Source of the DNA: an uncultured bacterium
GTDB lineage: Bacteria; Patescibacteriota; Gracilibacteria; Absconditabacterales; Absconditicoccaceae
Length of the DNA: 57,250 nt
NCBI GenBank assembly: GCA_903904875.1
Contig: CAIVEC010000003.1
Span: 1-57,250, forward strand
Direction of reading: 5' to 3'
The translations under genes were made by a program, and so were the position numbers. The stretch's first letter is position 1. Each line of letters begins with the position of its first letter. Shown piece by piece: positions 2,534 through 57,009 of this stretch. The notes below the pieces were generated by a model. The model saw only the letters and a program-made list of their open reading frames with translations, was not told the DNA's origin and ran no database searches.

Positions 2534-2534
2534 T

Positions 2535-2607
2535 TACCCCCGACAGGAGTCGAACCTGTGTTTACTCCTTAGGAGAGAGTCGTTCTATCCAACTGAACTA
2601 CGGGAGC
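2535..2607 (-). tRNA. tRNA-Arg (anticodon CCT)
   Basis: A 73-base cloverleaf on the minus strand. The acceptor GCTCCCG pairs with CGGGGGT. The anticodon stem ACTCT/GGAGT closes the loop CTCCTAA, so the anticodon is CCT, reading AGG. The T arm has GGTTCGACTCC. The CCA end is not encoded. It serves the AGG part of the Arg codon set, which is used normally here. Confidence 0.93.
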
Positions 2608-2710
2608 AAAACAAGTGTTTTTCTGTTATAGAGCAAAAAAAACAGTCCCTCCTCGGGCTTAGCCTCATTGTATAGTATTTTGGAGTAGAAAATCAAGGAA
2701 ATTTAGCAGA

Positions 2711-6342: not shown

Positions 6343-7341
<999 letters not shown>

Positions 7342-12271: not shown

Positions 12272-13045
12272 TTATTCTCAAGATATTTCTTTTATCTGAT
12301 CACGAATAACCGCAGCTTGTTCAAACTCCCACGCAGCTATGGCATCGTCCAGCTGTTTTTTTAAGTCTTTGAGGATGATTTCTTTTTCGAATTTAGTCAT
12401 TCTTTTGAGTCTTTTGGTTTTTCCTCTCGTGAGTTTATCGAAAGACTGGGAAAGCACTTCATCCGTTTTTACCACATCCAATCATTTGATATTAGATTCA
12501 GCTTTTTCTGGAGTGATATGATGCTCTTTATTATATTTGTCTTGGATACCGCGGCGACGATAGGTCTCCCGCAATGCCTTGATCATCGATTCGGTGAAAT
12601 TATCGGAATACAAGATAACTTCACTGTTCGGATTTCTGGATGCACGTCAGATGATCTGGATAAGTGATGTTGTGGAACGAAGGAATCATTCCTTATCAGC
12701 GTCAAGTATTGCAAGCAAAGTGACTTCAGGAAGATCAATCCCCTCTCTGAGCAAATTCACTCACACAATGATATCGATAGTTCCCGTTCTCAGCTTTTTT
12801 ATAATCTCTCGACGATCGATGGTTGCTATTTCGCTATGCAAATAGAACGCTTTATATCATTTGGAAACGAGAAAATTCGTCACCTCTTCGGAAGATTTTT
12901 TGGTCAGCGTAAGCAAAAGGACTTTTCATTTTTTGGCGATATGCTCATCCAGTTTTTTCAGCAGATGTTCCAAAAAAGCCGGCTTGGTGCCAGTGAAATC
13001 ATTTCCTTGCATAAAATCTTTGAGATTCTTGTATTTAGCGAACAT
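12272..13045 (-). pseudogene. uvrB: C-terminal half of UvrB (N-terminal half absent)
   Basis: UvrB is the damage-verifying helicase of nucleotide excision repair and is normally about 660 residues. This 257-residue reading frame holds only the second helicase domain (LTLTKKSSEEV, FYLHSEIATIDR, VGVNLLREGIDLPEV, ILDADKEGFLRS, IGRASRN) and the C-terminal UVR motif (AAWEFEQAAVIRDQI). The Walker A domain and the beta-hairpin are missing. A TAA lies one codon before the ATG at 13045, and no UvrB-like sequence follows upstream. Instead there is a tandem-hairpin repeat at 13096-13224. All motifs are intact, so it may still be expressed as a fragment. Whether a full copy exists elsewhere cannot be seen. 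Confidence 0.85.
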
Positions 13046-45660: not shown

Positions 45661-45737
45661 TGGTGGACGATAGAGGATTCGAACCTCCGACCCCTTGCAC
45701 GTCAAGCAAGTGCTCTGACCAACTGAGCTAACCGTCC
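45661..45737 (-). tRNA. tRNA-Val (anticodon GAC)
   Basis: A 77-base cloverleaf including an encoded CCA. The acceptor is GGACGGT/ATCGTCC. The anticodon stem CTTGC/GCAAG holds TTGACGT, giving GAC. Confidence 0.93.
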
Positions 45738-45748
45738 ATAATTTTACT

Positions 45749-45820
45749 TGACCTCGCCCGGAGTCGAACCGGGATTACAACCTTCGCAGGGTTGTGTCCT
45801 ATCCATTAAACGACGAGATC
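45749..45820 (-). tRNA. tRNA-Arg (anticodon GCG)
   Basis: A 72-base cloverleaf. The acceptor is GATCTCG/CGAGGTC. The anticodon stem CAACC/GGTTG holds CTGCGAA, giving GCG. Most bacteria use ACG (inosine at position 34), which also reads CGA. A G34 tRNA reads only CGT and CGC, as expected if CGA and CGG no longer mean Arg. No CCA is encoded. Confidence 0.9.
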
Positions 45821-45830
45821 ATAAAACTAA

Positions 45831-53883: not shown

Positions 53884-56800
53884 CTAGCGAGCACCACAGC
53901 ATTTCTTGTATTTCTTGCCGGAACCGCAAGGACATGGATCATTAGGTCTCACCTTACCTCCTGGCTGTGGAACCATCGGTTCGTCGAACACTTGAGGAGT
54001 TCATTTCGGTTTGTTCGCATCATCCACTTCGAAGATTTCGAACCCATCAGTATTTTCGTATACCATCTTTTCTGGCGCTTTAGTTGGCTTTTCGAATTTA
54101 ATCTCTTGGACTTCAGCGCTCACTTTTTCGAGCATCCTGAGATATTCCGCTTCGCTTTGTGAATTAGCCATAACCACTTGCTGTGCTTGATCCTGCTGTT
54201 GCACCATAGCGAAATCGATGCCGGCGATATACGCAGTTACATCGAATTTGAGTCTGTATAATAAGATCTGGAATTTATCGTACGCTTCAGCTTTGTACAC
54301 GATCAACGGATCAAGCTGTGCATATCACATCAGACCTACTTTATCCCTGAGATATTCCATATCATCGAGATGCTTGACTCGCAACGTATCCAAGTGATAT
54401 AAATAGACGTCTTTGAATATCTGGTATAATCTATTTACATCCATCATTGCAAATTTTGCTTTGAGCTGATCAAGCATAAAGAGTGAAAGCTCGACCTGAA
54501 GCTGTTCAAACGTCATCTCTTCAAAGGTCTGGAATTGTTTATGTTCAAACTTAAGAGAAAATTCCTTGTCCATTACACGCAAGAATTGTGCAGGAGATTG
54601 TTCTAACGTTTTTGCATTAGCTATCTGTTGACGAACGATATCAGCCATATTTTCCTCGATCTCAAGCTTGATTTGCTCTACAAGATATTTTCTGAGTTCT
54701 TCATCTGTTTCACTGCCGAGGATATCATCTCTTTTTTTGTAAATCGCCTGTCTCTGTTTGTTGATGACGCTATCATAATCGAAGAGGTGTTTTCTGATAC
54801 CGAAATTCCGGCCTTCCATCTGCTTTTGCGATCTAATGATGGAACTGGTGAATTGCTTTTGACTGAGCTCGAGATTTTCAAGGTCATTTTTTCCAAGCAG
54901 CATAGCCGCCACTCATTGGATCCTTTCACCTCCCATCTTGCGCATGATCAAGTCATCAAGCGCGACGAAAAAGACAGATATTCCAGGATCGCCCTGCCTA
55001 CCGGCACGTCCTCTCAACTGATTATCGATTCTCCTTGATTCATGTTTTTCTGTACCGAGGATGAAAAGTCCGTAATGGAAATCCTGTCCTATCGTTTCTG
55101 TAGGTGCTGCATCAGCAGGTTTACAGAGTAATTCAGCGAATGCGGCAGTATTTGCTTTTTTGCCACGATTAAATTTGACCTTCATCATGATGCCGTCATG
55201 ACTGACTCGATTCTGTTCAGCAGTTCTGATAAACTCATCATTTATGCCGAGTTCTCTCGTGATACCGTCCATTGTAAGCTCGAATTCTATCGATGAATAG
55301 ATATTTATGGATACTCATTTTTTTTCTGTCATCACCTGTTTCTTGATCCGTTTCGCATAATTATCTGCAAGTTTTTCATTGAGTCCTTGTTCAAGTTTGA
55401 TATCTGTTCACCTACCGGCCATGTTCGTAGCGACTACGACGCTTTTATATTTTCCTGCCTGAGAAACGATGTGCGCTTCCTGTTCATGGAATTTTGCATT
55501 CAACACATAATGCGTGATCGCCTCTTTTTCTAATAGTCTTGAAACATATTCAGAGGTCGCGATATTTGCGGTACCGATAAGGATCGGCTGTCAGATCTCA
55601 TGGGAAAACTGGATATGCTGTTTGACGAATTTCCATTTGATGGATTCATTGTAGTATACTTTATCATTTCTATCCACTCTGATCGTCGGTTTGTTTGTCG
55701 GAGCTTCCAATACAGAAAGTTCGTAGATCTTTTCGAATTCTTCTCCTTCCGTCAAAGCCGTACCTGTCATACCTGCAAGCTTAACATATTGCTTGAAGAA
55801 ATTCTGGTAGGTGATTGTTGCAAGCGTTTTGGATTCTCTTTGGATCTTTACTCATTCTTTAGCTTCTATCGCCTGATGCAAGCCTTCGGAAAATCTTCTT
55901 CCTGGCATCGTACGACCGGTATGCTCATCGACAATAAGCACTTCATTATCTTTTACGATATATTCCTTATCTTTTTCATAGACTGCTTGTGCACGAAGCG
56001 CGTTTTCGATATGATGGATCTCTTCGTATCAAATGTCTTTGTAAAGATTTTCCACTTTGAGAATCTCTTCCAGTTTAGTGATACCTCTTCCGCTCAACGC
56101 CGCAGTCTTCGTTTTTTCATCGATATAATAATCACCGTCTTCTTCCTGATCTTTTCATGATTTAGCCTCAGTAAGCAGTTCCTGGAGTAATCATTTAGAT
56201 ACTTTTTTCTTGGAGGTGCATGGGGTCAATCCTCTCGCAATCTGTGCGTAATAGATATATTTTTCTGTAGCTTCAGCGTTCGGTTCGGAGATGATAAGCG
56301 GAGTTCTCGCCTCATCGATCAAGATACTATCTACTTCATCCACGATAGCATAATTGAGCGGTCTCCGGACAAGCGATCTGTCTTTCATGGATTTGACCAA
56401 GTTATCCCTCAGATAATCGAATCCAAGTTCTGAATTTTCCACATAGGTGATATCTTTGGAATATTCTTCTCTTCTTTTGTTCAAAGAAACGGTTTTGGTC
56501 ACACATCCGCATTGTAATCACAATCGGGAATAGACATGTCCCATCCATTGGGCATCACGGGAAGCAAGGTAGTCGTTGACGGTGACCACATGCACTCATT
56601 TGCCGAGCAAGGCATTCAAATAGACCGGCATGATTGCAACCAATGTTTTACCTTCTCATGTCTTCATCTCGGCGATGATTCATTTGTGCAAGATGATTCA
56701 TCATAAGAGCTGGACATCATACGGAACCATATTCCATACTAACATCTCGCCTTTGACTTCCACCTCGGAACCCACCATCCTCTTGCACGCCTGTTTTACG

Positions 56801-57009
56801 GCAGCGAACGCTTCAGGCAGAATATCATCTAAAGTTTCGCCTTTAGTGAGCCTGTCCTTGAATTCTTGGGTCTTCGCTTTGATCTGATCATCAGAAAGTG
56901 CATCGAATTCAGTAGAGAATTCGTTTATTTGTTTGACGATCGGTCGGAGTTTATTGAGCTGTTTCTGATTATAATCTCCAGCTATCAAGGTAATTATCTT
57001 TCCAAACAT
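53884..57009 (-). CDS. secA: Preprotein translocase ATPase SecA
   Basis: The motor that drives unfolded preproteins through SecYEG. The 1041-residue product begins [20 protein letters not shown]. It has the Walker A region MKTGEGKTLVA (around residue 117), whose first Gly is TGA (56656-56658), then [36 protein letters not shown] and [18 protein letters not shown]. The C-terminal SEC-C zinc motif [13 protein letters not shown] is intact. It is longer than E. coli SecA, mainly through an extended scaffold and C-linker. All pieces are in one frame once TGA is read as Gly. The start is the ATG at 57009. Confidence 0.96.

What the first reader, a model, noticed from the sequence alone, without database searches (positions are those of the whole stretch)
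45749..45820. tRNA-Arg with GCG instead of ACG fits the loss of CGA as an Arg codon
Bacterial CGN Arg boxes normally use ACG with inosine, which decodes CGT, CGC and CGA. Here G34 gives GCG, which should decode only CGT and CGC. This is the tRNA change expected if CGA were freed for another amino acid. It also suggests that tRNA adenosine deaminase TadA may be dispensable for Arg in this organism.
Basis: partly seen in the sequence, partly recalled or inferred. Interest (0 to 1): 0.72.

Follow-up and report, generated by a model that had tools for sequence, protein, structure and literature searches.

The report
Ancestral tRNA-Arg(GCG) beside reassigned CGA/CGG codons
This is an ordinary arginine tRNA of Absconditabacteria (SR1), bacteria already reported to read CGA and CGG as tryptophan; the tRNA is an old trait of the wider group, and the change of code was made by two other tRNAs.

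Summary
The tRNA is real: tRNA-Arg with anticodon GCG at 45749-45820 on the minus strand, with normal arginine identity bases (A20, A73). The genome is an Absconditabacterium (SR1) with TGA=Gly. CGA has lost its arginine meaning here, and so has CGG: both read as tryptophan. In 30 related SecA genes, residues opposite CGA are 52% Trp and 0.3% Arg; opposite CGG, 85% Trp and 0.6% Arg. CGT/CGC stay Arg. However, GCG is not the change that freed CGA. Relatives outside the family carry the same GCG tRNA next to arginine-type tRNA(UCG), so GCG is ancestral, as published for the Candidate Phyla Radiation. The change sits in tRNA(UCG) and tRNA(CCG), both present in this genome on other contigs; they have lost A20 and gained G73, like tRNA-Trp. 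No TadA was found: the best deaminase is a guanine deaminase. All of this matches Shulgina & Eddy 2021 (PMC8629427). One possible increment: in this genome CGA+CGG make up about two thirds of Trp codons, further along than the published usage. Verdict: observation confirmed, interpretation partly right, biology already known.

The parts
45749..45820 (-). tRNA-Arg, anticodon GCG; reads CGU and CGC; A20 and A73 (arginine identity)
45661..45737 (-). tRNA-Val, anticodon GAC, neighbouring tRNA gene
2534..2608 (-). tRNA-Arg, anticodon CCU; reads AGG
54379..54381 (-). CGA codon 877 of secA (gene 53884-57009, minus): opposite Trp in 25 of 25 outgroup SecA proteins
54808..54810 (-). CGG codon 734 of secA: opposite UGG-coded Trp in three family members; Arg or His in outgroups
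6778..6780 (+). CGG codon 129 of trxB (gene 6394-7341): opposite Trp in thioredoxin reductases of known structure (4a5l, 3d8x)
7000..7002 (+). CGA codon 203 of trxB: opposite Trp in 4a5l and Tyr in 3d8x

Best explanation
This is the ordinary tRNA-Arg(GCG) of a candidate division SR1 bacterium (Absconditabacteria). It reads only CGU and CGC as arginine (pairing rule, inferred); AGA and AGG carry most arginine. The trait is inherited from CPR-like ancestors that use GCG in place of inosine-modified ACG and so need no TadA. Because no tRNA-Arg(ICG) covers CGA, CGA and CGG depended on tRNA(UCG) and tRNA(CCG) alone. In this family those two tRNAs lost the arginine base A20 and took the Trp discriminator G73 with, mostly, purine1-U72, and a single TrpRS presumably charges them, so both codons now mean tryptophan. 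GCG is thus a precondition for the reassignment, not its result. Shown here: the sequences, the identity bases, the codon meaning by alignment, the distribution across families. Inferred: charging, wobble limits, order of events.
For: tRNA and its identity bases. tRNA(UCG) and tRNA(CCG) in the same genome with U20, G73 and purine1-U72, like its tRNA-Trp(CCA). In the family, 23 UCG and 21 CCG tRNAs matched and all end in G73, and 25 of 27 GCG tRNAs end in A73; UCG and CCG tRNAs of other families end nearly always in A73, and those read in full have A20 and A73 except for one mixed case, L136. Outgroups with GCG plus arginine-type UCG: G014, G066, G061, G131. Codon meaning: 30-gene SecA alignment, outgroup SecA and GatA, TrxB against solved structures, guanine deaminase CGA 91 opposite Trp, Pfam scores. 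No TadA. One TrpRS. Literature: PMC8629427.
Against: No experiment: charging and decoding are not measured. The bin is 87% complete in 49 contigs and lacks, for example, a recognised tRNA-Arg(UCU), so absence of a gene from it is weak by itself. A few Pfam families score slightly lower with Trp (PS_pyruv_trans -5.4 bits over 10 codons, DUF87 -2.7, UvrB -1.6). SecA CGG 734 stands opposite Arg or His in outgroups. My pattern for GCG and ACG tRNAs was too strict to test the whole phylum (16 of 380 genomes each), so the CPR-wide statement rests on the paper and on the class-level comparison.
Confidence: 0.93

Rival explanations
1. The GCG anticodon is a derived change that freed CGA: the lineage had tRNA-Arg(ICG) and TadA, replaced A34 by G34, and CGA was then captured by tryptophan.
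For: GCG and the CGA change occur together in this family, and TadA is absent.
Against: Families outside it have GCG with arginine-type tRNA(UCG) having A20 and A73. TadA over the cut-off is absent from 98 of the 99 class genomes searched; the one that has it, G008, is also one of the few with a tRNA-Arg(ACG). The CPR in general is reported to lack ACG.
Confidence: 0.05
2. CGA and CGG are still arginine, read by tRNA(UCG) and tRNA(CCG) as normal arginine tRNAs; GCG is just the CPR habit and nothing was reassigned.
For: ARAGORN calls both tRNAs Arg by anticodon; a few Pfam families score slightly better with Arg.
Against: In 30 SecA genes, conserved columns opposite CGA are Trp in 54 cases and Arg in none, and opposite CGG Trp in 14 and Arg in none; SecA CGA 877 is opposite Trp in 25 of 25 outgroups; both tRNAs carry Trp-type bases.
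Confidence: 0.02

Closest known systems
CGA and CGG to tryptophan in Absconditabacteria (Shulgina & Eddy 2021, eLife 10:e71402, PMC8629427)
   Same: TGA=Gly, CGA and CGG = Trp, tRNA-Arg(GCG) for CGU/CGC, tRNA(UCG) and tRNA(CCG) with Trp identity, no ACG, low GC
   Different: In this genome CGA+CGG are about two thirds of Trp codons; the paper reports CGA below 37 per 10,000 in all species, measured in Pfam domains, and one species in which they approach UGG
tRNA-Arg(GCG) of the Candidate Phyla Radiation
   Same: Anticodon, arginine identity bases, absence of ACG and TadA
   Different: In the outgroup families examined here CGA is still served by arginine-type tRNA(UCG)
CGN decoding in Mollicutes without TadA (Yokobori et al. 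2013, PMC3711424)
   Same: Low-GC bacteria in which the CGN box is read without the usual I34 set
   Different: There all four CGN codons stay arginine; here two have become tryptophan

Membership tests
Absconditabacterial genetic code (TGA=Gly, CGA/CGG=Trp) | In-frame TGA where glycine is expected | tested here: met
   Long frames open only with TGA read through; TrxB with TGA=Gly aligns along its whole length to solved structures, Gly opposite Gly
Absconditabacterial genetic code (TGA=Gly, CGA/CGG=Trp) | CGA and CGG at positions of tryptophan and not arginine | tested here: met
   controls CGT/CGC, AGA/AGG and TGG behave normally
Absconditabacterial genetic code (TGA=Gly, CGA/CGG=Trp) | tRNA(UCG) and tRNA(CCG) with G73 and without A20 | tested here: met
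Absconditabacterial genetic code (TGA=Gly, CGA/CGG=Trp) | tRNA-Gly(UCA) gene | tested here: inconclusive
   Not among the tRNAs identified in this 87% complete bin; the bin is incomplete and one model hit (G000:C6:21706-21787) was not read
Absconditabacterial genetic code (TGA=Gly, CGA/CGG=Trp) | Relationship to candidate division SR1 | tested here: met
   SecA 84-87% identical to close relatives that include named SR1 MAGs, and 65% to RAAC1_SR1_1
tRNA-Arg | C35, A20 and discriminator A or G73 | tested here: met
tRNA-Arg | Charged by ArgRS | not testable with these tools
   needs biochemistry

The most novel reading that the evidence does not exclude
In this SR1 genus the reassigned codons have overtaken the canonical one: CGA and CGG together supply most tryptophan codons (about 66% in this genome and 52-63% in four sampled relatives; 55% in seven SecA genes), a later stage of reassignment than the published survey describes, and in this genome CGG has risen as well as CGA.
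Probability: 0.7. Interest if true: 0.35.

Novelty: already known. Interest (0 to 1): 0.25.

Why it matters
It places the observation correctly: the wobble base of tRNA-Arg(GCG) did not drive the code change but made it possible, since without tRNA-Arg(ICG) the CGA and CGG codons depend on tRNAs that can switch identity. The side-by-side tRNAs of this family and its relatives show the changed bases (A20 lost, A73 to G73). Gene predictions for such genomes with NCBI table 25 alone write Arg in place of Trp at about 0.75% of all codons.

Tried and rejected
TadA: the best hit (L031, 87 bits against a cut-off of 150) is a guanine deaminase, closest to 1tiy and 1wkq; the second (L032) is ComEB/dCMP-deaminase-like. 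Phylum-wide counts of GCG and ACG tRNAs by pattern: too strict, 16 of 380 genomes each, not usable. Pfam bit scores alone are a weak test because many CGA/CGG codons lie in variable columns; alignments were decisive. Origin of tRNA(UCG) and tRNA(CCG), switched arginine tRNA or copied tryptophan tRNA: pairwise identity is 61% and 67% to own tRNA-Trp and 47-60% to outgroup UCG/CCG arginine tRNAs, while the UCG anticodon loop (CTTCGGA) is shared with the arginine type; unresolved.

Full report
Observation. ARAGORN places tRNA-Arg with anticodon GCG at 45748-45821 on the minus strand, next to tRNA-Val(GAC). Rfam's tRNA model gives 56.1 bits at 45749-45820. The acceptor stem pairs fully, A20 and A73 are present, and the loop is CTGCGAA. 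The pattern of anticodon loop plus T-arm occurs once in the window, against 0.01 expected by chance.

Host. The window is contig C3 of a genome of 965,715 bases in 49 contigs, 87% complete, with 37.6% GC. With table 11 the window breaks into short frames; with TGA read as glycine, full-length genes appear. SecA is 84-87% identical to close relatives that include MAGs named candidate division SR1 bacterium, and 65% identical to the complete genome RAAC1_SR1_1. The organism is an Absconditabacterium.

Is CGA still arginine? No, and neither is CGG. I masked both codons and aligned SecA from 30 members of the family. Opposite 96 CGA codons the residues are 52.3% Trp and 0.3% Arg; opposite 17 CGG codons 85.0% Trp and 0.6% Arg. 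Controls: TGG 75% Trp; CGT/CGC 65% Arg and 0.2% Trp; AGA/AGG 74% Arg and no Trp. Among columns at least 70% of one residue, CGA falls on Trp 54 times and on Arg never, and CGG on Trp 14 times and on Arg never. Outside the family, SecA codon 877 (CGA) is opposite Trp in 25 of 25 sequences. In TrxB, CGG 129 and CGA 203 are opposite Trp in the solved structure 4a5l. In the guanine deaminase of the same genome, CGA 91 is opposite the Trp of GAIYWAR. Reading CGA and CGG as Trp raises the Pfam score of SecA_SW, Amidase, PBP and Pyr_redox_2 by 4 to 6.6 bits and lowers a few others by up to 5.4. Reading CGT and CGC as Trp, the control, lowers Amidase by 12.3, Helicase_C by 10.2 and the UvrB domain by 16.9 bits.

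Which tRNAs changed? The genome also has tRNA(UCG) at C36:32558 and tRNA(CCG) at C26:27980. ARAGORN calls them Arg by anticodon, but both have U20, G73 and a purine1-U72 pair, as does its tRNA-Trp(CCA). In the family, 23 UCG tRNAs and 21 CCG tRNAs matched my patterns, all with G73, while 25 of 27 GCG tRNAs have A73; no ACG tRNA matched in its 33 genomes. In other families of the class UCG and CCG tRNAs nearly always have A73, and those read in full have A20. So the identity switch lies at the base of this family, in tRNA(UCG) and tRNA(CCG). One TrpRS gene was found in each of the seven family genomes searched.

Is GCG part of the change? No. Outgroup genomes such as G014, G066, G061 and G131 carry tRNA-Arg(GCG) together with tRNA(UCG) of full arginine type. 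[quoted passage not shown] GCG is therefore ancestral and a precondition. My phylum-wide pattern counts were too insensitive to add to this.

TadA. Of 99 class genomes, only G008 passes the TadA cut-off, and it is also one of the few with a tRNA-Arg(ACG), a fitting exception, although contamination of that bin is possible. The best deaminase of this genome scores 87 bits against a cut-off of 150 and is a guanine deaminase by similarity to 1tiy (E 5e-51).

Known or new. CGA and CGG to Trp in Absconditabacteria, with this very set of tRNAs, was published in 2021 and is cited in 2026 (PMC8629427, PMC13092985). The one increment is usage. In this genome CGA and CGG are 43 and 32-40 per 10,000 codons against 37-42 for UGG, or 66-67% of Trp codons on the window and on six other stretches; four relatives of the same genus show 52-63%. 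In seven SecA genes of close relatives the share is 55%. The paper reports lower use, but over Pfam domains only, so the two are not directly comparable.

Noticed in passing
window genes; L189-L194: CGA+CGG supply about two thirds of Trp codons in this genome (CGA 43, CGG 32-40, TGG 37-42 per 10,000), a later stage of reassignment than reported for the clade; close relatives show high CGA but little CGG.
   Followed up: partly
G008:C4:807-1268 and G008:C63:6141-6182 (L142): The only class genome of 99 with TadA over the cut-off is also one of the few with a tRNA-Arg(ACG); either a real exception or a contaminated bin.
   Followed up: partly
G012 (family f12), L136: tRNA(CCG) with A1-U72 and G73 but a different D-loop that keeps A20, in a genome with many in-frame TGA; may be a case of CGG to Trp outside Absconditabacteria.
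   Followed up: no
G189:C241:15273 and G050:C2:6789 (L050): tRNA-Arg(GCG) with discriminator G73 instead of A73 in two genomes of the family where G73 marks the Trp-type tRNAs; A20 (present in L050) may then carry arginine identity.
   Followed up: no
G026:C1:41481, G036:C1:13602, G098:C15:30320-30440 (L143): ACG-anticodon tRNA-like genes with an unusual D-arm (seen in L143) in one family of the class (f18); they may not be true tRNA-Arg.
   Followed up: no
window 12272-13045: A 257-residue UvrB C-terminal part stands as a separate frame instead of a full-length UvrB; possible frameshift or split gene.
   Followed up: no
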